Below are positions 1 through 26,957 of a stretch of DNA of 33,800 nt, piece by piece. The translations under genes and the position numbers were made by a program. Origin of the DNA: Chromera velia (lineage: Eukaryota; Sar; Chromeraceae); contig JAHBMJ010000042.1 of the NCBI GenBank assembly GCA_018398765.1, positions 25,001 to 58,800 on the forward strand, given 5' to 3'. The notes beneath the pieces were generated by a model. That model was not told where the DNA came from and did not search any database. It saw only the letters and a program-made list of their open reading frames with translations. Each line of letters opens with the position of its first letter. The stretch's first letter is position 1.

Positions 1-153
1 GCATATCTAGCTGCATGCAAGAGCCCACCCACCCAGCCCGTCTCTCTGCATGGCGGCTGAGGTCTGGTTGAGATCACCCGTCCATGCATCCCTGTGATCT
101 CTCGATCTTCTGTGCTTGCACTGCTTCTTTCCCTGCCTGCCTGTGATAGAGAC

Positions 154-3100
154 ATGGAGTCCGGCAAAGAGTTCCCATCTTTTGTTTCTCCCGCTGTTAC
201 TCCCGCCCTCGATCGCCCCTGCGACGGCTACTTGTGGAAGTTAGGGGATGGTTTCTTCAACAATTACTGGAGCGAGAGGTACGTGGTGGTGTTCGCTGGT
301 TTCCTCTTTTACTTCGACAGCATTCACGACGAGAACGCGAAGGTTACAATCAACCTCCAACAGGCAGAGATTGAGTGGATTGGAGCCCACAGGGGAAGGG
401 GGAACGTATTCCTCCTCAAGTCCCCCCACCACTCCAGAGAAGTGCACCTAGCGTCAGTCACTGAGGCAGCCAGTCAGGGCATGCAGAAGTCAGTGTGTGG
501 GTGCTGGAGAATGGAGTCGACAGAAGAATGTGCGTGTCCCTGGATAAGTGGGCAAGTGAGAGGGTACAGAGCCATGGGGAAGAAAGATTCGTTTGCTCGC
601 GCCGTCTCCTGTTTGCCTGGGGTCCTGAAATGCGTCTGTATGGTCTCCCGTGCATCGATGTGGATGGAAAATTACTCTGAACGATTTTTCACTCCGTCTA
701 CCATCCTCTAAGTGCCCTCTCGCTCTCCTTTCTCTGCAGCTTAGATTGTTTCCCGTCTCCTACTTCCTTGCTGGTTGCCGTCGATCTCATCGCGCGCACT
801 TTTCTTCCCTTTTTCGAAGAATCGAACGCTTTCATGCCCTGTAAATTCTCTCTCTGTCTACTCTGTTTTTGTCTGTGCGCTCTCCTGCAGTGCGGAGACG
901 GAAGATTCGTCCCGACAATGGATCGATTTGATGCAAAGAGCCTCTGCAGCAGCCGCAGAGCCTGAGGCTTCCCCCAGTCCGCAAATGTCTCAGTCCGCCC
1001 TGTCGTCCCCCCACCGTCCTCTGTCAACCCTCGGCCCCCCCTCTTTATCCCTCGACTGGCTCTCTCAAAAAGCGTCACTCAGAGATACACAGCCGTTGCG
1101 TCGGTGGTCAACTCAGAAAACTTCCGGTTCTTCTCTGTCTCTAGCCTCTTCAGCCCTCTCAGTCGTTGAAGCTGCACCTGCAAGCACAGCTGTGACACCC
1201 CCAAATCAGGCAGACGACCCTGTCGCGCCTGCAGTTGCACGCGCAGCGCGTGACGTGGTGAGTCGCGCACAACGATTGATGGAGACAAAAACACGAGGGT
1301 GGATGGAGAGGAGAAATTCTTTCCGGGGTACAGGTCCGGGGTTGACCGACCCCTGGCCGCCCCCGTGCATCTCTCGCGAAATTGGTGAGGAAGCCGGGGT
1401 GCTCCATTGCGTTGCCTCGGGATACCTCGTCAATCCCTCTTTAGTCGGGAAGCCCTTGGGGGGTAAACCCCCTGAGGAAGGTTTGAGTCTTGTTGGTCGT
1501 ATGATGAGTTGCCTGGGGGGATTGGTGATTTCTCTTGTATCGTTTTTGCTCCCCTGTGTGGCTGGGGTGGTTCTCTTTTTTTTAGTTGACGCGTGGATGG
1601 AGGAACACCCAGACCGAGATTGGGCAGCGTTGTGGCAGAAGTATAAACGGGTGGCGACCCAGTCCGGAGATTGGGCCGGGCCTCAGGGGGGTAGGTGGCC
1701 TAGGTGGAGGTCCATTTGTGGAATTCGGCTTCATACAGCATGGGGGGCATTGATAGAACATTTTGTTTCGTGGAGGTTTTCCTTTTCCGATTTGGGTACT
1801 CTGTTGGGTCTTGGTCTTTTGGTGTTGCTTGTGGCAGTGGGGCTATGGGGTTTGTTGCAGATTTTGTGTCCGTGCAGACGCAGGGGGAGGAGAGGGGAGT
1901 CTGCGCTTCCTAGAGAGAGGGGCGATCTGATGTCGTCAGGGGCAAGTGGAGCGGAAGTGCTTTTTGCCGCAACCGATGTCCAAGTGTCTGTTGCGCATTT
2001 GGCGTCGGTCGTTGCATCTTTGCAGAGACGAAAAGAGCTTCTGCTCGGACTTTTGTCGGTTGATAAAGCTTCTTTGGCAAGAGATAGCAGAGATGAAAGT
2101 GAAGAGAGGAGTGGTGTGACAAGGGAACGGAAACGAAGTCTGAGTGGAGAAGATGGAGAGGCAAAAACCGGGGTCGGGGTGTCTAAGAGAGTCTGGTCCC
2201 GAGACTTTGCAGTGGTGGATGTTGTGGAGAGACATGAGAGACGGCCACACGGAGGAGGCACGTCATTTGCCTCACCCCACCGTTTCACACGAGCGTACAG
2301 AAGGTTGACAATACGTGATCGTGAATCTGTTGATGGTGGGGGTTGTTTCTTTATTGTGTCTTTGCCTATGGAAATGGACACGGGGGGGATGAGAGGAGCA
2401 CCGGGAAGAGGGTCTGGGCATGGAGGGAGTCTGGGCAGCTCTCCTCGGAGACGGAGAAATAGAGGGGTGCATGGGGGTCCAGGGGGGTCGGTATTCTCTC
2501 TGGAGGGTGTTTGCCCGCTTCCTCTGACGAAGATCGCGACGCCCTCAGATGACAATCCGGTGGAGGTCTTTGTGTGCCAGAGCTCTCGGAGTGACCGCAC
2601 GGCATGTGAGTCGATCAGTGGGGGTGTTCATCGTCATGCATGGCTGTGATCGTGTTTCTGCAATGCCTGTTGATGTGCAGTCCTTGTCTGACTGCTTTCA
2701 TATGCTTAGAAAGAGACTTCGCGGTCAAGGACGGGAAGCACGCCCTTTTGAGAGAGAAAGAGACAAACTATCAGGAAGGTACACAGCCAGACAGCGCGAC
2801 AGACAGACGAATAGACAGACGAATAGATCTGCAGAGAAACACATGCGTCGATCGAACGATGGGGCAAAGGGACGAAAGCGGGGAGACGGGGCAACCAACA
2901 CATGTGAATCGAACGAAGCCATTGTGCTGTACTTGAAAATTTTACATCCTGTAGAACGCATCACTGTCGGTACCCTCATGCGCCTCCGAAGAGGAGGGGA
3001 ACGAGAACAGAAAGAACAAGTTGGGGGGGGGCTGCATGGCCTCTGTCATCTCCTCTTCTCCTCTCCTCTCTTCTCCTCTCTTCTCTTCTCCTCTCTTCTC

Positions 3101-6100
3101 CTCTCTTCTCTTCTCCTCTCTTCTCTTCTCTTCTCTTCCATTTTCCGTCTGTCTCCTGCTTACTCTCTCTCTCTCCGTGCGCATGCACATCATATATGCG
3201 CAGCTGAGCTCTGCTACATGGCGACCGGCACCTTTAGGGGAAGGGGGGGGCTGGGGGGGTCGGGGCTCTTCGTTGGCGGCGCGGGTAGCGGGGAGATGGG
3301 GGGCGTTGGGGCCTCCTTGCCTGCCTCCCTCGCGGCGTCCTTCGTCGCCATAAGAGCATTTGCAGAGGTCAGGCAGTCAGTCAGTCAGCCCGTATACCTG
3401 CGGGTGTAAATTGGCTCAGATGGAGGCATTCGATTTGGTTCCCTTTTTTTGTAGCGAAACTGACAGAAGCCTCTCTTTCTCCCCATGAACTGCAACACAG
3501 GGCCGTTCGTAAACCGCCGTCTATCCTCTTCTCCCTTTCCCTTTGCCGCCTGATAACAAGCAAGCGTCAATGTTCAGCCATTGCACCCCTTCCCTTAATT
3601 TCTTTCCGCAGAACTCCGAAGGATCCCCCTACTACGTCTCAAGTCTGGAGAGAGAGCACAGACCCCCCCACTCCGTCCTTCGACCCTCCTTATCTCGGAA
3701 GGACAGTCCCAGAAAGCTCCTCGTCGCACAACCCTCCAACAGCCCAGCCCTGGGAAGCCAGCTTTGGATCCTCCCAGGCACAGACAGAGGCTCAGCCCCA
3801 CCATCGGAGAGCCTCACCGCGCCATCCCCCGCCGCCCATGCCGCCGCATGTGCAGCTGCCCCGTCAGTGGAAGTAAACGAGGGGGGCGAGTCCAGTCGGA
3901 GTGATCCTTCGGGTAGGGGGGGCAGGGCCAGCGTGCTGAGGATAGAGAAGCGCAGGGGCTCTACAGGAAGATCCCCTTCCATGTGAGTGGGTGGGTGCGT
4001 TCTCCTTGCACAACGTCCATTTGCCATGCTCAGCTTCCCCTCTCGAGTCGCCGTTTCTTCCTTTCTTTCCTTTCCTTTGTGCACAATGTCCACCTTCTAT
4101 GCTCAGCTTCTCCTCTCGAGCGGCTCTCCTTGTATGCCTGTCTTTCCTGGCTTGTCTGGCTGCGCGTCTGCGGACTCACCTTGCTTCTGTCACTGACGAT
4201 GCTCTTCTTCCCTCTCTTGAGTGCGTGTACTGACTGGACGACTGAATGACTGACTTACACTCCTTTCCCCTTATGAGATCATTGTTGGAGTTCCTCTCGG
4301 CTGTCTCCATCAAACAATCCATCCACTGTTTTTTTCCTTTCCTTTCCTTTCCTTGATTGTTATTCTCACCTTCTGCCCCTTCGATCCCTCCCGCCCCCTC
4401 TGTTTCCTCCCTCCCTCCCTTCAGGCTGGGTGTGGATCATCATCTGACATCTCAGGGCCCGTCTCGAGAGAGATCCCGGGGGCTCCTGTCGTCTTCCCAA
4501 GCCTTGGCAGAGGGGGGGGATCTCGAGTGGCCCCTCCACGGGTTTGAGAGGGTGTCGCACTATGGAGGCCTGAAGCTGATCGACCAGGATCTTCTCGACA
4601 AGCAGAAGGGGGTCGCCTCAGACATGCTCAGACAGGCCGCCTCTCTGATTGCACAAGTACGTTCGTTCTGTAGAGAGAGCTGTACTTGGGTCGTTGGCTA
4701 AGCCTCGAGTTCTCTCTCCCAGTGACGTTGTTCTTTTTCTCTGTAGTGGAGTACAAGGAGATCAAAGAAAGATGGAAGGAAGGAAGAACGACTGATCGAA
4801 CTGATCGACCCGTCGCTTGGTTTCTTTCACCTGCTTTCTCTCTTTGGTTTCTTTCACCTGCTTTCTCTCTTGAAGTCTGCTCTGCTTGCGACTGAAGGTA
4901 ACTGGGGGCTCCTTTTTTTTTGCTTGTCTGCTTTTCGCGAGTGAGTTGATTTGAGCCTTTTCGTGTCCCCTCACTCACTCACTGAATACATACAGGCCCG
5001 TCCGTTGACCCAAATCAGCCTGCCTGTGAGGGTGTTCGAAGGGCGCAGTCTCCTCCAGAGGGTTGCGGATCTCTGGGGATTCGGGCCTGCATTCCTTCCT
5101 CTGGCTGCAAGGTACACAGATACAGACCCGCTGGAAAGAGCAAAGCTGTGTCTCTGCTTCCTGCTCGCAGGCCTGCACAAAGGTCAGTCGGTCCTGCAAA
5201 CTCGAAGAGACGAACAAGCTTTAAGGGTTAGATTTTACGCGATGGAAGGAAGGAAGCAAGGAAGCAAGGAAGGAAGGAAGGAAGGAAGGAAGCCGGAAGA
5301 GGCTTGACAGCAGGCTGTTTTTTTATTCTGTTCTGCTTTTGCTTTCTGCTCCGTTTTGTTCTGTTTGCTTCAAATTCTTTGAAAAAGAAAGAGAGGGAGG
5401 GAGAGGAAGAGAGAGAAACAAAGTCCTTGCTGCAGTGCGAACATTTTTTGGTTCTTCTCCGCTTACATCTTGCTGCAAAAACAGGACAAGGAGGCTTCTG
5501 CTGTCGCTCCTTCTGATTGTTGTAAGGCTCTAGAGGTGATTACACGATCCTGTGTGAGTCCTTCCATGCAGGCACTCAACAGCTGAAGCCCTTCAACCCC
5601 CTCCTAGGCGAAACATTCCAAGGAACGTGGAGCGATGGGACAAAGGTCTGTCTGGAGCACACACGGCATCACCCACCTGTGTGCCATTTTCAGGTGGACA
5701 GCCCTAGAGGGGGATATCAAATGGATGGTCACTACAAGCTCTTGATGAAACTAGGCACAAATGCGGGCCTCGGATTTCAGGAGGGTCCGACGAAAATTCG
5801 TTTTCGTGATGGGGCAACTGTGACTTTGACGTGGCCAGCCATGAGGCTTTCCGGCATTTTGTACGGCTCTCGGATATTTGAATGGGTAGGGGAGGCGACG
5901 GTCACGGACGAGAAAAATGGGATTTTTGGGTCAGTGCGATTTGGGGAGACCACGGCGGACGGCAAGGGCGGAGGGAGCGTGTTTTCCCCGCCTGCCCTCC
6001 CTTCAGAAGAAATCAGGGGGAAAGTGGAAGACTCCAAAAACGGCACGAGCTCTCAACTCACTGGCAGTTGGCTCGACCTGGTCGAGTTCGACGGACAGAA

Positions 6101-6936
6101 GTCAGTCGAGTCTTCAAAGACATGAATGAAAGAAACGAGGGGGAAGAGGGGATGTGTACCTCGAGGAAGGGACGTCTGAGGCAGAAATGGAAGGCTGCGG
6201 GTATTCACGGAGGGATCGTTCTATTCGGTTTAATTTATATTGCTGGACAACAACTGTGTCTACACCCTACTTGATCCTTTCGCCATTCCTCCGACTCCGT
6301 GCCTCTTACAGGCCTGCGGGTCTGTCAGAAAGCCAGCAGGATTCCATGTGTGCGAGGACACTTGGCACTGTTGCGTAGGTGCATCCTCCTCTCTGTGATG
6401 GCTTTTTTAGGTTTGTACCTTTTAATTTTTCTTCCAATTTGAGTGCATGTGTATCCATGCTCATCTGCCAACGCACGGGGTCTCGGATCTGTCTTGGTCA
6501 TCTCCTGATTGCGTGCGCACTTTCTTTCAGATACTGGGGGATTTATGACAGCGGGTTCGAGGAGGCTGTGCCTGTCTCTGCTGCCGAGAGTCTGCCCTCT
6601 GATTGCAGGTGGGAAGGAGACGTCTTTCTTTTCTTTTACATTCTCTCCTGTGCTTCCTTTTGTTCCTTCTCAGAGGGATTGTTTGTTTGCTGCTGATTTT
6701 TGCTCGAATCAAATTTCCGGCTGCTCCTCTTCGTTTCTTTTTTCGCTGTTGTTCTTCTCTTTCATTCCCTCCCTTTCCGTTTCTTTCTTTCTTTCTTTCT
6801 TTCGTTCTTTCTTTCGTTCGTTCGTTCGTTCGTTCGTTCTGTCTGTCTGTCTTTCTTTCTTGCTTTGTTGCTTTCTTGCTTTGTTGCTTTCTTGCTTTGT
6901 TGCTTTCTTGCTTTCTTGCTTTCTTTCTTTCTTTTT

Positions 6937-6967
<31 letters not shown>

Positions 6968-7754
6968 GTTTTTCTCTTTTTCTTTCTTTGTTTCTTTCGT
7001 TCGTTCGTTCTTTCATTCTTTCTTTTTTTTCTTTTGTGGTCTGGATGAACGTTCCTCTCCCTTCTTGTGTGGTCAGATGGCGACCTGATATCTTCTTTCT
7101 TCGGAACGGCGACCTGGACCTGTCTCAAAAGTGGAAACACTGGGTTGAGGACAGACAGAGGGAAGACAGGTAGGTATGTCGGCCCGTACCTATGTCGCCC
7201 ATCTTCAAAAATCTTGCTCACAGTGTCTGACCATGTGAACCGTTGAGCTTTTCGACGCTGCCCTGGACTCTCTTACTTTCGTGAAGGAAGAGTCGGTGTG
7301 CCTGTGTGCAAGGACCTTTGTCTTTCATTTCGTATTGTCGGATTGCCCTGGACCGATTTCGCCGAGAAGAGAAAAAAGAGAACGGACCTCGTTCCCTGCC
7401 CTCATTTCAGCACGACACTATGTTTGTCGATCCTTTGTCACTCGCACGCTGGATGCTTCTCCAGTAAGAGTTTGTTTTTCTGCCTTTATTTATTACAATG
7501 TCTCATCTTCGACTTCAGAAGCATGAAGGACTCTCTGCCTTCCGCTCTCTTCCCTTCAGGGCGGTGGTTTGCTCAGCATGACTTCATGCAAGAGGTAGAG
7601 CTGACATGTGTCCTTCCAAATTTCAAAATGGTCCTCGATTGTTTTACACACGCAGTCTTTCTTTCTTTCTTTCTTTCATTCATTCATTCTTTTCTTCTTT
7701 CCTTCCTTCCTTCCTTCTTTCATTCATCCATCTGTCTCTCTCTCTCTCCCTCCC

Positions 7755-17438: not shown

Positions 17439-20400
17439 ATGTCGGACAGAGACGCGCACAGAGCGGGGGGGGGATGGGAGTCTTCCAATTGGAGAGACTC
17501 TGCAGACGATCGCTCATATGTTCCGGGTGTGTCGTTCAAGAGCATGAACAGGAAGAAGGGTGGCGGATACACGCACTTCAGCAGCCACCAAAGAGAGCCA
17601 CGCGGTGGTGGTGGGGACAGAGATAGAGATGGATTTCGAGAGCGTAGAGGTTCCTGGGACTGGAGGGATAGGGACAGGGAGACGAGAGACCGCCGTGATT
17701 CCTGGGACAGTCAGGGGGGCAGAAAGCAACAGACGGCAGTTCGGTCATCTCAAGGACCTCCGGAGAGTCCGGGGGCTGCTGGGCGCGATATCTCGTGTCT
17801 TCTTGCTGACACACCTCAGCCTTGGAAGAGGGAGAGGGGGAGCGTCGGCAATGCGCACTCGTCATCTGGGACCGTGGGAGGTTCGAATGCGCACGGTGCG
17901 GGAGGTAACCGAGGAGGTCGGGGGACCGGAGGAAAAAACGCGGCATCAGACTTTGGGGAGATCGAGTGGCGTGACGGGAGACCGTTCAGGAAAGGTGGGC
18001 AGGGAGGGCGAATCTACTTGACCAGGCCGTCCAGAGAGGCGAGCTCGCACACTTTTTGTTTTCCGTCCACATAAGATAAAAGCAGTATGAGGAAACTTGC
18101 GAGAGACGGCAGGAATGTGGCCTTCTTCTTTCTTCTCCGGCATTTCCCGCCAGGGAGCAATCAAGAGTGCAAGAGAAGAACTTGACAAATGCGTTTGCTG
18201 CCATAAATTTTACAGCGTGTGACGCAACAACCGCATCTGTATGTATCCACGTTCTGTTGCTTTTCTCTTTATGTGCAGGTGCCCCTTTGTGGGACTTTTC
18301 TGTGGATACTCACCCTTCAGTATGGGGAGAGAGGGAAGACTTGGCAGCGCTGGAGGAGGTGCACCCCCTGACTGAGTATAAACGGAGCCGACACGTCAGT
18401 TCAGACCCTTTGATGTTCACGTTTACGTTCGATCATGTGGTGCTGTTTGTCTTGTCGGAGTCCACTTTGTCTTTTTCATTTCAAACAATCCTGTGGCCAC
18501 TGGATGGAAGGTGATGAGTGTCTGCGCAGCACACTGGGCCCGCAAAGCAAATGTCTCTTGGATTTTTCAATCTTTGAGGCCGTCTTCATTCTTCCAGCAC
18601 ATGTGCCTGATCTCGGTCTACAGCCCACCTCTCGATCCCCTCTCCCCTCTCCCCTCTCCTGTTCTTTGCAGGTTCTCCGTTTACAGCGCAGATATCGTCT
18701 GTGGTGCCGTCAGGAGATGGGTCTGGCAGAGCCTCCCGGAGACTCTCTTGACCGGTTTCTCCTGCACGGCCTCGCGCTACCCCGTCTCCCTGCGCCTCCC
18801 GGGTTTCCTTCTCATTGCAGATGGAAGAAACCCGAGGGGGTTGCAGAGGCACAACAGGGGCAGGGAAGTCTGCCTGCCGAGGCAGTCTCTTCGAATGGTC
18901 TCACTTGGTCCACCGTCGTCTCGTCAGATTCCTCCCTGTCGTGGCCAGGAAAGCCCAAAAAAGTGAAAAGACGGAGGTATAGGAGAGCGAGAAATCCCGA
19001 AGAAAGAGAAGAGCATGAACGAAAGAAGGCACTCAGAAGAGCTATTGCAGAGAAAGACAGAGACGCATCTTTGTCTTCTGCGTCTGATTCAGACTCCTCC
19101 AGAAGTTCCGCAGCTTCTCGAGTCGAGGCTGCGGCGCCTCACAGAGATGAACCCCCGATATCAGACCCGACGCCCCCCCCGACCCCCCCCGCAGCAGAAG
19201 AAGAGCCCCCCCCGCCCCCAAAGAAGAAAGGGTGGGGAAAAGTAGACGAAGATAGTCCAAGGACAAAAGCAGCAACCCCCTCTCCCTCAAATCCCGAAGA
19301 GGATGCAACTGTGGAGAAAGAGGAGAAGGAGACTCCCTCTAAAGAGGATACTAATTTTCCTTCCTTGTCTTCTTCTGCCTTCCCTTCTCTTGCTGCTTTG
19401 CGCACTTCTCAACAGGTGTCGAAGAAAGGAGGAAAAAAGGGAGGACAGAAACAACACCAGCAAAACGAGCCCGCCCACCCAACCTCCTCTCTGCCGGTCC
19501 CCCCCCCTCAACCAAGCGCTGCCGTCACTCCCACAGCTACTGCTGAAGATGAAGTGGCAGACGCGTCTGGTCGCCAGAGTGAGGCCAGGGGGGGGCCCTC
19601 CCCTGGAGGGGTGGGCGGGCGGGTGTCAGGCGCTCGTAATCGAAGGCGAAAGCGTCTGGGCAACAAGGCCGCCCGTGCTGGCAAGAAGACAGACGCAGAT
19701 AGGGAAGGGGGTACGGGTGACGGCCATTCCGAGCTATCTTCTGCCGTTACGCCTGCGGGTGTGTTTGCGTCCTCCCCCGCCTCCACGGCTGGAGTGACTT
19801 TGAAAGCTGAGCAGAGCGGGAGGGAGGAGCTTGGTGGAGAGTCTGGGGGGCATCAGACGCAAAGAGAGGCTGCGGAAGATCTTCGCAGAGTAGAGGAAGA
19901 GGAGGAGGGGGGTTGTTTGAGCAACGACAAAACAGCACCTTCAGGAGCAGGAGTAGCCGGCCCTAGCCCAAAGGCAGCAGCTGAGAAGGAAGAAAAGGGG
20001 ACAAAAGATGATGACCCACTCCTCAGAGCACCAGAAAGGGCTCTGGAAACTGACGTGCGTCTCTCTCTCTCTTTCCTCTCTTGCTCGTCCCATCTCTTTC
20101 TGTCTTTCTTCTGTGCTTCTCTATCCTTCTTCCCATCTCTTTTTTTGTCTACCTTGTAGCATTCTCAAGACCCCCCTGTCCCTCTGTGGGGAACTCCAAC
20201 ATTTTTTTTGTCGGTTGTGTGTTCTGGCTCTTTGGAAATTTGGACAGCACAAAGTCAGATTTTTCGATTGTTCGCTAAGTCCTTCACCTTTTGCACACTT
20301 CTGCTTTGCCTCTCTGTTGCTGCTCTGTCTGAACGAGCTTATGCAGGTTCTGCGGCGTGAGCTGATAGCCGAGTTGCCATTTCGTCTTCCTCTCTCACAG

Positions 20401-22410
20401 GTGGGCTTCTTTTTTCCTTTCTTTCATTGTCGCTGTATTTTTTGCACTGTAGACATTCACTCCACTCCTTGATCGAATTACAGCAAGAACTGTCTCTCCC
20501 ACGACAAAATAAGTGGGAAGGGTTGCGCACGGATGAAAACGTGGAGAGAGAGAGAAAGAGACAGAGAAGCAGAGACAAAAGCAGACCATTTTCATAAGAA
20601 AGGCAGCACGTTTGTCCAAAGACCTTCCTTCCTCTTTGATCAAGACGTTCCCTTGCCGCTTCCACGTTACAAAAGGAGGGGTAGTCAGTGACTGCACTTC
20701 TTTTCTCTTTTCTCTGTCTCATTTTGTCATTGCTGTAAGTAAACACTCCAAACATGCATCGCAGGATGAATGGAGGGCTCAGCATAGGGTATCTGCGTAT
20801 CTGCGCAAATCCGAGGAGCTTCTTCGGAAGGTCCGGAGGTTGGTCGAGCGCCCCCACCCTCACGAGCTAGAGGCCGCTCGAGATCTGGCGCTCCAGATTG
20901 ACGCGGCAATGCGGGGGAGAAAGGCGGCGGTGCGATTCGTCCCTTCTCGGTCCTCTCCGTCTTATCAACAGGCAAACGAGCCAGATGAGCCTCTGTCTCG
21001 AGGAGAGAAGAAAAAGAACAAGAAAAGGAGAAAGAAGAGCGAGACCACCGTGCAACAAAGTCTCGGGGGGGAGGGACTTAAAACCGCCGTTCACCCGCCG
21101 CTCCCTTCTCTTTCAGTTGCGGCCTCAGGGCGCCCCCCGAAATCGCCTCCCCCCGTCCCCCCTTCTCCCCTCACGCAACCCCCACAACAGCAACCGCAGC
21201 AGCAGCAAAGTTTGCAAGTGCCGTCTCCATCAGTGTGCCCCGGAAACGGCAAAATCGAAAAGGAGAAAGAAAAAGAAAGATCTGCTGCCAACGGTCCGAA
21301 CGGAAGCCGGTCGGGAAGTCCGAATTATTCGGGCAAAGATTCTCCAGCCCCTTCCGAGACCTTCCCTGCCCTTTCGCCTCCAATGGGCGGAATGGCTCCC
21401 TCTGCTTCCTCCCGAGCGTCCACTACAGTGCCTCCAGGGGGGGCCCGGGGGAATTGTGGGGCGGTGGGAGAAGGGGGAGGCAGCGTCTTGCCCCCCTTGG
21501 CGGAAAGCGAGCGAGAGTCTGTTCGTGGAGAATGTGAAAGTACTGTCGATGGGGGGACGTTCGCGTTGACTGAGAGCGATACCGAAGATCCGTTACTGTG
21601 CCCTTCTGCCGTCGGCACCGCGCTTTTTGCCTCTCCTCTTCAGCGTCGTGCTGCCACAGGGGACGGAGGACTGACGCACGCAGCGGCCTCCTCGTCTGCG
21701 TCTTCTTCTTCTGCAGCTGCTGTGCGCGCGCACAGCGATGGTAATTCTTTGCACCCACCTCCTGAGGGGGTGGTGGTTCTTTTTGACCATATAGAGGAGT
21801 CCCTGGAACAATTAAATGAGCTTTTAGGGACTGCTGACAGTGGGAGGGGGGGATCGTCCTCATCCCCCTGTCCCCCATTTTCAATAGCCAGGGAGGCGTT
21901 TGCCTTCCGGAGACTTCGAGAGCTTCGAGGTCTCTTGTGTATTGCCGCGGAAAAGGAGTCTATGGAACTCCTGCGTGAAGAAACAAAAGAGAAAGAGAGG
22001 GAACAAGAGAAAGACAAAGATATAGATGAAAAGGAAGAGAAGGAGGAAGAGGAGAAAGAGAATGGGTCTTTAATTGATGAGATTCAGAGTCAGAAAGAGA
22101 GAGAGAAAGAGAAAGAAAAGGAGGTTTCCGGTTGGCGTGCGGCAGTCAGGTTAATTCACGCCACGCTGATCCATTTGTGGAAGCCGATAGTGTCCCCTTT
22201 GGTAGACCGGGTCTTGGAGCTTTTGGAGTCGGAGGTTCACCACACATCGGTGTGTTTGAAGGAGCTTCGTGACCTGACGTGGGAGAGTGCGGAGAGGGAG
22301 GGAGAACCTCCGCCGGTGATTCGAGCGCACAATGGAGGTTCGTCGTTTCCTTCATGTGATGCTCAACAATAGGGCAGAGAGAGGGAAAAGCGATGAAACA
22401 CACAAGTACA

Positions 22411-22480
<70 letters not shown>

Positions 22481-25400
22481 CTCGAAGTCGTGTCCAAAGA
22501 ACACTGAGAGAAGGATGTGCATATGCAGCACCAGGACTCTTGCTTGACCAATCAACAGATTGCATTCATCCCCCTTTCATGTCTCTACAGGTGACTCTGA
22601 GAGTGGGCACACCTCTGGAAAGGGCGGTGGGTGCCCCTCTGCGGATTCGCATTCTGAGTACATGGAGATTCGTTTCAAAGACGACCGTCAGTCAGTCCTT
22701 CAGTTGAGCATAATGTCCATATGGATCACGGTCGCCATTGTCTGACCGAGTTTGTCTCTCAACTTCGCCCTTTTCTTTTTCATTCGTCTGAACAGGTCTG
22801 TCTTTCAACTTCGCCCTTTTCGTTTTCATTCGTCGTTGCGTGGGAGTTTCTGTCGGTGCGATGAACTCAACCAAGAGGGCAGACAGCTCGAGTGAATTAA
22901 CAGAAAGAAATAAACAGATGGTTGGAGATTTTCTCATTCGCATGTCATGTTCTGCAACCCGTGCTTGTACGTCTGCGTCTGTGTGTGCATGCATGCATGC
23001 AGGCATCCCGTTGAGTGTGCTCCACTTCACGAAGATGAAGGCCCTGTACGAGAGGCACAACAGGGAGTCTGACCCTGGTAAGTGAGTGAGTGCATGGGCT
23101 CTTCTGGGTGTGGGAGGGAGAGGGACAGGGCGGGTCGGGGCAGGGTGGATTTTGAGAGAGAGAAAGTGAGGACAAAGAAAGTGGGGACAATCTAGGAGGG
23201 GTGGAGGGAAAGTCAATCAGGGTTTGACATTGAAGGATTGTGAAGTAGGGATTTCATTCCTTTTTTGGCATCAACAACAACACCCATGAAGGTTCGGTGA
23301 GGTCTCAACGAATGACGTTCCGTGGGCGATTGGTGAGCTGAGAGGCAGTAATCTCATCGGCTTGCTTGTCTTGTCTGTCTTCTGCGTGTCTGCAGAAAAT
23401 GAAAAGCTGGCCAGACGTCTGTATATCCTCGTTCGTCGCTACGTGTCTTTTATCGGTCGGTCACTTATGCATGGGAGGTGTCTCTCTTCTCTTTCTGTGC
23501 AAGCGAGGCCTGTCCTTTTCTCTTCTGTTTCTTCTCATCGATTTTGCCAATTCTCTTGAATGATAGACTTCCCGGCTTTTTCTCAGACAGATCAATCAGG
23601 CCCCTTCCGTTTCTAGCATCTATACGCTTGTTGGTTGATTCATTTGGTTCCGCGCGTAAAAAAAAAAAAAGAGACGGGCATGGACACGCAGTTGGAATTC
23701 CTCAATCTGTCACTTTGGGCGGGCTGCTGTCTCTCCGCATCTTATTTTCGTGAAGTGGATTGTTGCTTCCTCCGTCTCCACATAATTCCTTCCTTCCTTC
23801 CTGTCTGCAGGGATTGATCCACGAAAACCCGGAAACCTGGGGGGAAATATGCACGCAGCAGCCCCTGGTGAGTTTGTTTTCATGAGAACTTGCGCGAGTT
23901 TGTGTGTTTGTCTTACCATCTCGTCCGTCGGTTGTCTTTTAATCCGAAACGAAGGAAAATTCCAATTCCATCTTCGCACTGCGCGGAAAAGGAAGAGAAA
24001 GAGAGCACCTGTCTCTCTGGTTGACTCTTTCGATCTTCATTCTGTGCCCTCTCTCTCGAATTTGAAGAAAGAAAAGAGGGTAGAGGTGACTGCTGTGCTT
24101 TTCGATCTCTGGGGCTGCTTTTCGATTTTGTGGGGGCTGTGGTGGGTCCAACAGGTGAAAAGCTCTTCGGAAGCAGACGGCAACAGAGTGAGGCAAGGGA
24201 ATGAGATAGAAAAGGATGCACTGCGTGGCTGTTTTTGCCCTTCATCATACCAGTGTTTGTTTACGTGGTTGCGTGCATTTTTTTCTTCGATTGATTGCTT
24301 GTCTGTTTGCAGAGAACGTTTTCAAGTGGCTGCACGCGAACATGGCAGTCTCATTTGAGGGATTTGCGAGCCCTCTGAACTGCTTCTTCCCCCGCTTTTG
24401 CTCGGCGTTTCCGGACACCGATAGGTCGGTCGGTCTGCCCGTCAGTTTCAGACGGCAAATGCTTGCCCGACAGGGGCGGTTGCTGCCCTATTGCTGATTG
24501 TCGGTTACGCTTTCCGCTCTTAGACCTCAGTTGATGGATCAGCTCGGCTGTCTTGATGTCGGAGTGAAAAAAAATGAATTGCTGAGCCTCTCTGCCTGCC
24601 GTCTGCAAAGATGGCCTTGGAATAGAAGGGCCAAACTGAGAAATTAGAGAGAGGGGGGGGCCTCGCCTTACCCCACTTCTTTTTAAACGTGTCTCTTTCT
24701 CCCTCCCTTACCCTTCTTCCTTTCAGGTGGTTCGGTTCGCAGGGCAGCTTTTTTGACTTCTGGCCGAAGAGCGGCCACTTTGAGGTGGGACCTCCGTACA
24801 CTGAGGAGGTCATGCAGGCGGCGGCTGAGCACCTGCTGGAGGTCTGTCTGTTTTTTTGTTTGCAGCCCCAGCTGTCCTCGCGTGCCTGCCAGCGTGCCGA
24901 TTTGTCCTTCCTGCATTTCCCCCCCCCCCTTCATTCCCCTTAAATGGCTCTTGCTGCCCTTCGCTGCCCTGGGTTAAGTGTCTTTTGTTCCGGTGACCGC
25001 GCCTTCCTTGCCTGCGGTGATCTTGCAACATGAAGTGCCTGCCTGATTGACCGAGGTTGTATAGAGGACCATGGGCACAGGGGGGCATTTCCGTTTGCAC
25101 ATTAGTCTGTGTGCCTTCATGCCTGCCTGGTTCACATTTTGCCTCTCTGTTATGTTCATTGGTCGGAGGAAAAAGCCAAGAACGATACAGAGGTGAACGA
25201 AGAGGCGAACGAACAATCGGGTCCTCAGTCCTACAGGGGACACAAACGGAAACGGAAGGTCCATAGCAACAACCGAGCAGAGAGAGAAGGGGAGAGATTC
25301 GGTTCACTTCACATTGAGCGTCATTTTTGTGTCTGTCTGTGTGTTCATGCATGCAGCTGTTGGAGGCAGCGCGAGACTCTTCGGACCCGCTCTCCTTCAC

Positions 25401-25915
25401 CTGCTTTGTGCCTGACTGGCACTCGCCGCCTTGTCCTGGTCAGTCCTTTTTCTTCTCTTTGACCTTTTTCATTTTCAGTCCGAAAACCCGATTTTGTGCT
25501 CTCTGCCAAAGCGAATCTCGCTGCCTGGCCGGTCGAAAGGGAATGGTGCGATCGCCGTGTTTTTCCGCCACAATCTTCATGACCTGTTGTCCTTCTCAGT
25601 CGCACTTTTCTTTTCTTTCTTTTCTTCTCCCCCCTCGTCTTCTTCTTCTTCCTCCTCTTTTTCTTCTTCTTTTGACTTTTAGCTTCCTTTCTGCGTGCCT
25701 CAGATTTCCTGTCAGACATACCCGATGTGATGTGATGTGATGCAGCACTAGAATTCATGGAGAGTGAGCGCTTTGGGGACTTCCTCAAGGCACGAGAGGT
25801 CGCTCCTGGACGGGCGGTGAGTCTTTTTGTCTTTTTGTTTGTTTGCTTGCGTTTTCTTTTTTTGTTTGTTTGTTTGTTTGTTTGTTTGTTTGTGTTCTCT
25901 TTTTTTCTTTGTTTG

Positions 25916-25949
<34 letters not shown>

Positions 25950-26957
25950 CTTTCTTTGTTGGTTTGTTTGTTCGTTTGTGTTTTTCTTTGTTTGTTTGTT
26001 TGTTTGTCTGTGTTTTTCTTTGTTTGCCTACATGGCTACATGTGTTTGAACGTGCCGAGGGCTCTAGGAGTGGGTGGGAGTTTATGAGCACCGCCTCCTG
26101 TGTCCACGTGAATCAGCCAGTGCAGCGCAGAGCGTGCGTCAAGCACCTCCATTTGTCTGGTCACTGTCTGGTGAAGCAGGGCGAGAAGCAGCGAAAGACA
26201 AAGAGAGAGAAGAGGAGGGGGGGGAGACAAATCAATGAGTACCTTTCCGTTGCAGTGTCCCCTGCTCCTTCCATTTTTTCCGCTCCTTTTCGGACGAGTG
26301 CAGTGAGGAAGGAAAGGCAAAATACACAGAGAGGGAGATGCATTTTTCAATGGCATTGAATCTGAATCGTCTCAGCATTCCTTGATGGTCGTCATGCTTG
26401 TGTTTGTCTGGTGCCTGCGGTTTTATCGGCGCAAGAAGCGCTTGAGAAGTTTGCGACAGTCCTGTTGATTCTGAGAGTGTTGATGTGAAAGAAACTGTTG
26501 TTTGTCTATGCGCGCTCGTCCCTCTTGCCTGCCTGCCTGCCTGCCTGCAGCACCAGTACATTTCCGGAGTCCAGTTCATGCTCGACAAAGGGTCCGAGAA
26601 GAGATACTACGTGCCCCCCCATGGAACGAGGGCGTACGTGTATCAGGTCAGTGAGTCTTCACGTTGGTGTATGGTGCTTTGAATGTGTGTCTAACAACCA
26701 AAAATAAGGTCTTTTTCCGGACCTCGTCAGTCATCTTTGGAGTGGCGTATGCAGGCGTTCTCATTCTCTCAAGACTCTACGTGGAATGAAGTGGAGAGCT
26801 CGACTTCCGGACTGATCCCTCATGTCTGGCTTCTTTCTCTCGTTTGTCCTTCTCTTGCCATCTGCCTTCCTTTCAGAATGCGGCAGCAGCTGAGGCACTC
26901 CCAATCACCGTCCTCTTCAAGCGAACTCTCCTAAAGCAGATGTGCAACGTCCATTGA
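17439..26957 (+). CDS. PCIF1: PCIF1/CAPAM-like cap-specific mRNA (2'-O-methyladenosine-N6) methyltransferase homologue with altered active site
   Basis: Homologue of the enzyme that makes m6Am next to the mRNA cap, about 1508 aa. Exons: 17439-17994, 18279-18394, 18672-20054, 20347-20400, 20765-22337, 22591-22686, 23003-23077, 23396-23455, 23811-23867, 24313-24424, 24727-24841, 25357-25438, 25746-25816, 26551-26646, 26877-26957. All phases and CAG acceptors agree. PCIF1-family blocks in order: PLWDFSVDT (about 188), RRYRLWCRQEMGLAEPPGDS (about 230), LPFRLPLSQ (end of exon 4), YMEIRFKDDR (about 1250), FASPLNCFF (1341-1349), SAFPDTD (1354-1360), LSFTCFVPDW. The catalytic NPPF is GPPY at residues 1382-1385 (bases 24788-24799). 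Residues 1-185 are rich in Arg/Gly/Asp and have no WW domain. Long low-complexity inserts fill exons 3 and 5, including a Lys/Glu coiled-coil-like run at about 1101-1158. The family call is firm. Catalytic activity is doubtful. Confidence 0.95.
22411..22474 (+). repeat. (CA)n-(GA)n microsatellite in intron 5 of the PCIF1-like gene
   Basis: About 15 CA units run directly into about 16 GA units, inside the intron between 22338 and 22590. Confidence 0.95.
25601..25680 (+). repeat. Pyrimidine (CTT)n / (CTTTT)n tract in intron 12 of the PCIF1-like gene
   Basis: An almost pure C/T tract ending about 65 bases before the acceptor at 25744-25745. Confidence 0.85.
25840..26033 (+). repeat. (TTTG)n with internal (GT)n microsatellite in intron 13 of the PCIF1-like gene
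   Basis: TTTG units start just after the exon 13 donor at 25817 and surround a GT run near 25918-25947. Both strands give only repetitive open frames. Confidence 0.9.

What the first reader, a model, noticed from the sequence alone, without database searches (positions are those of the whole stretch)
24788..24799. PCIF1/CAPAM homologue whose catalytic NPPF is GPPY
The flanks are strongly conserved (SAFPDTD, FGSQG, SGHFE before; EEVMQAA after), so the position is certain. The codons read GGA CCT CCG TAC. In human PCIF1 the NPPF Asn is needed for N6 methylation, and amino-methyltransferases of this class use (N/D/S)PP(Y/F/W). Gly has no side chain to hold the adenine amino group. GGA is three base changes from either Asn codon, so a simple read error is unlikely. 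The gene otherwise looks intact, so it may be a cap or Pol II CTD reader that lost catalysis, or an enzyme with altered chemistry. Drosophila PCIF1 has been reported inactive, so loss has a precedent.
Basis: partly seen in the sequence, partly recalled or inferred. Interest (0 to 1): 0.82.

Follow-up and report, generated by a model that had tools for sequence, protein, structure and literature searches.

The report
Cap-methyltransferase homologue lacking its catalytic asparagine
An intact gene in a photosynthetic protist encodes a relative of the animal mRNA-cap methylating enzyme PCIF1 that has kept the reported cap-gripping residues but lost the key asparagine of its active site, so it may read mRNA caps rather than methylate them.

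Summary
GGA CCT CCG TAC at 24788-24799 (+) encodes GPPY where PCIF1/CAPAM has NPPF, inside exon 11 of an intact 15-exon gene model (17439-26957, 1508 aa, all introns GT-AG). The methyltransferase domain matches zebrafish and human PCIF1 (E 5.8e-41 and 1.4e-39). All six relatives compared (human, zebrafish, one viral-collection protein, three other loci of the same genome) keep NPPF. Two further points: Gln490 of the active-site loop, constant in those six, is His here; and the three residues reported to recognise the m7G-cap ribose (zebrafish R239, R269, E563) are all kept here, while each of the three NPPF paralogues lacks at least one. No WW (Pol II CTD-binding) domain was found. Best reading: a PCIF1 homologue that still binds the cap, and probably SAM, but has lost or reduced N6-methylation: a cap reader or non-catalytic partner. 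Altered chemistry is not excluded. The Drosophila precedent is F to H (NPPH), not loss of Asn. The organism is probably Chromera velia (inferred). Activity, expression and orthologues could not be tested.

The parts
17439..17994 (+). exon 1 (aa 1-186), low-complexity N-terminus; no WW domain found
   Evidence: gene model; 0 Pfam families at E<=1 in the first 285 residues
18279..18394 (+). exon 2 (aa 186-224), start of the PCIF1 helical domain (WDFSVDTHPS...)
18672..20054 (+). exon 3 (aa 225-685), helical domain then a long low-complexity insert; Arg equivalent to zebrafish R239 at 18753-18755
20347..20400 (+). exon 4 (aa 686-703), helical domain; Arg equivalent to zebrafish R269 at 20356-20358
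20765..22337 (+). exon 5 (aa 704-1228), helical segments (inferred) and a long low-complexity insert
22591..22686 (+). exon 6
   Evidence: end of it aligned to PCIF1
23003..23077 (+). exon 7
23396..23455 (+). exon 8
23811..23867 (+). exon 9, most of the active-site loop (equivalent of human F479-P494); His at 23852-23854 where relatives have Gln490
   Evidence: loop limits from PMC10544176 passages
24313..24424 (+). exon 10, FEGFASPLN...CSAFPDTD
24727..24841 (+). exon 11, carries the catalytic-loop motif
24788..24799 (+). GPPY in place of NPPF (aa 1382-1385)
24803..24805 (+). Glu equivalent to zebrafish E563 (cap ribose), kept
25357..25438 (+). exon 12
25746..25816 (+). exon 13
26551..26646 (+). 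exon 14, substrate-binding-loop region
   Evidence: loop limits
26877..26957 (+). exon 15, C-terminus and stop codon

Best explanation
The gene encodes a PCIF1/CAPAM-type protein (helical domain plus Rossmann methyltransferase domain) that still docks on the 5' m7G cap, and probably still binds SAM, but no longer transfers a methyl group to adenosine N6 at a normal rate. The side chain that holds the acceptor amino group (Asn553 in human) is replaced by Gly, and Gln490 in the active-site loop by His. It most likely works as a cap reader, competitor or non-catalytic partner. Shown: the substitution, the intact gene model, homology over helical and methyltransferase domains, the kept cap-ribose residues, and Asn kept in all six relatives compared. 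Inferred: cap binding, SAM binding, loss of catalysis, and any partner.
For: Asn in 6 of 6 relatives and Gly only here. Among alignment positions where the other six agree, this protein departs at four: Q490H, N553G, F556Y, S602E; three lie in the published active-site and catalytic loops (loop limits PMC10544176 passages). N553A and F556G reduce PCIF1 activity, and R239, R269 and E563 are reported as crucial for cap-ribose recognition (PMC11550742 passages). These three numbers fit zebrafish chain 6irx with one offset (R, R, E). The window protein has R, R, E; paralogue A has D, P or E, P; B has R, R, P; C has R, H, E. The gene model is intact. Of the four loci it is the closest to zebrafish PCIF1: 44.5% (B 37.9, A 36.0, C 25.6), and it has the highest PF12237 score of the pieces scanned (181.3 bits; A 156.9; B and C were scanned only in part). 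Its end branch is not long (0.51; A 0.45, B 0.86, C 3.26). A methylation-inactive human PCIF1 mutant kept a role in interferon control (PMC12896973, title and passages), so a role without methyl transfer is plausible.
Against: No biochemical or expression data. N553A is reported to reduce activity, not necessarily to abolish it, so Gly plus a new His could still support slow transfer. PP and an aromatic residue are kept, which a dead site need not keep. The concentration of the four departures in active-site loops is not significant on its own (hypergeometric P 0.083), and B and C have as many or more departures (4 and 6). Three kept cap residues could be kept by chance. The numbering of R239/R269/E563 was inferred by offset; R269 of paralogue A is poorly aligned; B has a Glu one position after the E563 site that might serve instead. 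The length of the active-site loop varies among the relatives too, so its extra four residues against the animal proteins say little. The tree is weakly supported (1 of 4 inner branches starred).
Confidence: 0.6

Rival explanations
1. Still an m6Am writer: the Pro backbone carbonyl, the aromatic residue and a compensating His at 490 hold the adenine well enough without Asn.
For: PP-aromatic kept; Q490H occurs in the same protein as N553G; N553A is described as reducing activity (PMC11550742 passages) and NPPF point mutants as reduced (PMC6318281 passages).
Against: Asn is kept in all six relatives compared, even a viral one at 27-33% identity to the five sequences it was compared with. APPA and SPPG are used as inactive mutants of PCIF1 (PMC10544176 passages).
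Confidence: 0.2
2. Altered chemistry: the pocket now methylates another acceptor on the cap or first nucleotide, or another group.
For: The substitutions reshape the acceptor site (N to G, F to Y, Q to H) while few other family-constant positions changed.
Against: No positive evidence; no methyltransferase with GPPY came up in the calls made, though no search was aimed at that motif outside the PCIF1 family.
Confidence: 0.1
3. Decaying duplicate or sequence/assembly error, functionally irrelevant.
For: Three other PCIF1-family loci with NPPF exist. Single assembly, no reads available here.
Against: 15 exons open and in phase with GT-AG borders. GGA is three changes from Asn. This is the least diverged of the four loci from zebrafish PCIF1.
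Confidence: 0.08

Closest known systems
PCIF1/CAPAM (human 6irv, zebrafish 6irx; Pfam PF12237)
   Same: Helical-domain start and methyltransferase domain align; PF12237 E 1.7e-53; cap-ribose residues R239, R269, E563 (zebrafish numbering) kept.
   Different: GPPY for NPPF, His for Gln490, active-site loop four residues longer than in the two animal proteins, two long low-complexity inserts, no WW domain found, m6Am activity unknown.
Drosophila Pcif1 (catalytically dead, still binds Ser5-phosphorylated CTD; PMC9916840 and PMC9479742, passages)
   Same: A PCIF1 homologue with a changed catalytic motif in an otherwise kept gene.
   Different: Fly change is Phe to His (NPPH) with Asn kept; fly protein binds the CTD, whereas no WW was found here.
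METTL14 (non-catalytic partner of METTL3; its motif and role recalled, from no call)
   Same: Possible analogue: a methyltransferase fold with a changed motif that serves substrate binding beside a catalytic paralogue.
   Different: Different family; no evidence of a complex here.
NPPF paralogues of the same genome (C2013:50246, C994:112449, C994:69239)
   Same: Same family; helical-like region plus methyltransferase domain.
   Different: They keep NPPF and Gln490, but each lacks at least one of the three cap-ribose residues.

Membership tests
PCIF1/CAPAM m6Am writers | PF12237 methyltransferase domain homology | tested here: met
   PF12237 E 1.7e-53, profile positions 1-176 of 176; PDB 6irx E 5.8e-41
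PCIF1/CAPAM m6Am writers | PCIF1-type helical domain before the methyltransferase domain | tested here: met
   its first ~120 residues aligned to 6irv i-E 2.7e-6 and 6irx i-E 6.8e-4, in a query from which low-complexity inserts were left out; the middle of the domain was not aligned
PCIF1/CAPAM m6Am writers | catalytic NPPF motif | tested here: not met
   GPPY; so it is described as a PCIF1 homologue, not filed as a CAPAM writer
PCIF1/CAPAM m6Am writers | m7G-cap ribose residues (zebrafish R239, R269, E563) | tested here: met
   R, R, E; residue list from PMC11550742 passages, numbering inferred by offset
PCIF1/CAPAM m6Am writers | N-terminal WW domain binding phosphorylated CTD | tested here: not met
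   0 Pfam families in the modelled N-terminal 285 residues; none of 22 genome WW matches is on C42. Unmodelled upstream exons, or a WW split by an intron, not excluded.
PCIF1/CAPAM m6Am writers | N6-methylation of cap-adjacent Am | not testable with these tools
   needs protein assay or cap mass spectrometry
catalytically dead PCIF1 (Drosophila type) | loss of methyl transfer with a kept non-catalytic role | not testable with these tools
   sequence is compatible; no activity or phenotype data

The most novel reading that the evidence does not exclude
Division of labour among PCIF1 paralogues: this protein keeps the cap-docking residues but not catalysis, while NPPF paralogues keep the catalytic motif but lack cap-docking residues, so cap adenosine methylation in this alga may need a hetero-complex of a cap-binding and a catalytic PCIF1, as METTL14 serves METTL3.
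Probability: 0.13. Interest if true: 0.78.

Novelty: new variant of a known kind. Interest (0 to 1): 0.55.

Why it matters
Reviews seen here describe PCIF1 as the only writer of m6Am next to the mRNA cap (PMC9916840, PMC10544176, passages), and its roles apart from methylation are debated. A natural homologue that has lost the catalytic Asn while keeping the reported cap-ribose residues would separate cap binding from methylation and give a natural test of which PCIF1 roles need methyl transfer. The four-member family, in which each locus departs at one or more of the catalytic or cap positions compared, also raises the question of whether this organism makes m6Am caps at all, and which locus does it.

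Tried and rejected
Alternative NPPF exon or second copy of exon 11: none seen. Bacterial, archaeal or phage relatives: none by one scan of genome contigs and one tblastn of phages. Viral scans: of four scans of viral contigs three gave a relative, always the same contig (L011/L025), with NPPF. Extra PCIF1 loci suggested by weak matches: C1842 and C491 (E 0.28, 0.64) and C509 (E 0.03) were fetched and read. C1842 and C491 look like chance matches without the motif; the 5 kb at C509 gave no methyltransferase-domain match beyond a broken one (best E 0.006 for that 5 kb, with a stop inside) and I take it as chance. A fourth weak match, C3834 (E 0.20), was not read. The helical-domain query did not find the window gene or locus A, so it is not sensitive. 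Identifying the organism through light-harvesting proteins against PDB: no match at 1e-20 for one and only distant ones for the other, best E 4.1e-23. Dating the Asn loss or a selection test was not possible without a close orthologue. Paper searches, 10 of 10 used. 'PCIF1' with 'dinoflagellate' gave 0 papers. 'PCIF1' with 'Chromera' gave one review, PMC9778586; its passages name 'the PCIF protein' once in general terms and PCIF1 in reference titles, not for Chromera. Where something is called new, it is new only with respect to these searches and the sequences examined.

Full report
OBSERVATION. The window comes from a eukaryotic genome with introns (G000, 177,833,721 bases, 4040 contigs; the window is contig C42, bases 25001-58800). 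At 24788-24799 (+) the sequence reads GGA CCT CCG TAC. I built a gene model from conserved peptides and splice signals: 15 exons from 17439 to 26957, GT-AG at all 14 introns, phases consistent, one terminal stop, 1508 residues, GPPY at 1382-1385. The methyltransferase part hits zebrafish PCIF1 6irx (E 5.8e-41) and human PCIF1 6irv (E 1.4e-39), with GPPY aligned to NPPF without gaps. A longer query, with low-complexity inserts left out, also aligns the first ~120 residues of the helical domain (i-E 2.7e-6 to the human chain, 6.8e-4 to zebrafish). Pfam gives PF12237 over its whole length, E 1.7e-53. PF12237 is named PCIF1_WW, but PMC7641849 (one passage) states that it is a CAPAM-like methyltransferase and not a WW domain.

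IS IT CHANCE OR ERROR? GGA is three changes from the nearest Asn codon and two from Asp or Ser. The exon is unique in the held genome by DNA search. Of 7 places with [NDSG]PP[FYW] in six frames of the window, none other is PCIF1-like. The reads could not be inspected, so a sequence error is unlikely but not excluded.

RELATIVES. A search of the genome with PF12237 gave 7 exon matches in four loci; the window protein gave 13 matches in the same four loci. The other three are C2013:50246-50752 (A; one open frame of 794 codons), C994 at 112.4 and 111.9 kb (B; one intron in the domain) and C994 at 69 kb (C; one intron in the domain). All three read NPPF. One contig of the viral collection (L011; 79.5 kb; next to a piece of family B DNA polymerase, so probably a large DNA virus) encodes a PF12237 protein (E 8.5e-21) with NPPF. 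One scan of genome contigs and one of phages found none. With human and zebrafish this makes 6 of 6 relatives with Asn, against Gly here.

WHAT ELSE CHANGED. In an alignment of the seven sequences, 145 columns have a residue in all seven and 14 are invariant. For each sequence I counted positions where the other six agree and it does not: window protein 4 (Q490H, N553G, F556Y, S602E, human numbering), A 0, B 4, C 6, zebrafish 0, virus 1, human 3. So the number is not unusual. Without the virus the counts are 10, 1, 6, 21, 0 and 4 (window, A, B, C, zebrafish, human), and the window protein again has Q490H, N553G and F556Y. What is unusual is that three of the window protein's four lie in loops that PMC10544176 (passages) calls the active-site loop (F479-P494) and the catalytic loop (N553-C557). 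This concentration is suggestive only (P 0.083). The active-site loop is four residues longer than in the animal proteins in the alignment, but its length varies among the other relatives too.

CAP BINDING. [quoted passage not shown] Human 563 is Ala, but all three numbers fit the zebrafish chain 6irx with a single offset of 177 (R in FNRWLL, R in MFREIM, E in NPPFCE; alignments). In three alignment modes position 239 is R in human, zebrafish, window, B and C, and D in A. Position 269 is R in human, zebrafish, window and B, H in C, and P or E (poorly aligned) in A. Position 563 is E in human, zebrafish, window, C and virus, and P in A and B (B has a Glu at the next position). So the window protein is the only one of the four loci with all three cap residues and the only one without the catalytic Asn. 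No locus of the four keeps the full set. This rests on one residue list and on alignments that are weak in the helical domain of A.

CONSTRAINT. The window protein is the closest of the four to zebrafish PCIF1 (44.5% over 211 columns; B 37.9 and A 36.0 over 211, C 25.6 over 207). Its end branch is 0.51 changes per column (A 0.45, B 0.86, C 3.26), though only one of four inner branches is well supported. An intact frame and low divergence argue against a pseudogene. A selection test needs a close orthologue, and none was found in the collections searched.

NO WW DOMAIN FOUND. The modelled N-terminal 285 residues have no Pfam match at E 1 or less, and none of 22 WW matches in the genome lies on C42, C2013 or C994. 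A Pol II CTD reader is therefore less likely than a cap reader, but upstream exons were not modelled and a WW split by an intron could be missed.

MECHANISM. From what is recalled of amino-methyltransferases, the Asn side chain and a Pro carbonyl hydrogen-bond the acceptor amino group while the aromatic residue stacks on the base. N553A and F556G reduce PCIF1 activity (passages); APPA and SPPG are mutants in common use as inactive (passages). Gly removes the side chain. I infer that the protein binds the cap and probably SAM, but transfers little or no methyl to N6, and acts as reader, competitor or partner (0.6). A human PCIF1 mutant without methyl transfer (NAAF) is reported to keep a role in interferon control (PMC12896973, title and passages). 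Residual m6Am activity (0.2), altered acceptor (0.1), and decay or error (0.08) remain. The bold version is that cap binding and catalysis have been divided among paralogues; nothing here tests for a complex.

PRECEDENT. Fly Pcif1 is described as catalytically dead and still able to bind Ser5-phosphorylated CTD (PMC9916840, passages), but its change is Phe to His in NPPF (PMC9479742, passages). In honey bee the change is Phe to Tyr and no m6Am was detected, which those authors do not ascribe to the change (same passages). Loss of the Asn itself was not met in any natural sequence or passage seen here.

ORGANISM. 58 matches to the light-harvesting family point to a photosynthetic protist. The size is compatible with Chromera velia (193.66 Mb, 5953 scaffolds; PMC4501334 passages), of which the held genome would be about 92%. 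This identification is an inference, not a test, and a canonical PCIF1 in the missing part is possible. The genome also has two MT-A70 matches and 10 FtsJ-family matches.

Noticed in passing
window 61-708 and 5526-6122 (+): PH domain (E 5.2e-9) and oxysterol-binding protein domain (E 2.9e-23) in open frames about 5 kb apart, perhaps exons of one OSBP-like lipid-transfer gene upstream of the PCIF1-like gene.
   Followed up: no
L011 2371-3411: A 79.5-kb viral-collection contig encodes a PCIF1-like methyltransferase (PF12237 E 8.5e-21) with NPPF beside a piece of family B DNA polymerase and a DUF7487 protein; perhaps a cap-adenosine methyltransferase of a large DNA virus.
   Followed up: partly
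G000 C2013:50246, C994:112449, C994:69239: Three further PCIF1-family loci in the same genome, two of them about 43 kb apart on one contig; A is a single open frame, B and C as modelled have one intron in the domain, unlike the 15-exon window gene.
   Followed up: partly
window 25826-26026: About 51 copies of TTTG inside intron 13 of the gene; a similar TTTC array of about 64 copies at 6780-7034.
   Followed up: no
window 18672-20054 and 20765-22337: Two long low-complexity, charged and Pro/Ser-rich inserts split the PCIF1 helical domain, making the protein 1508 aa against 704 in human (human length from PMC10544176 passages).
   Followed up: no
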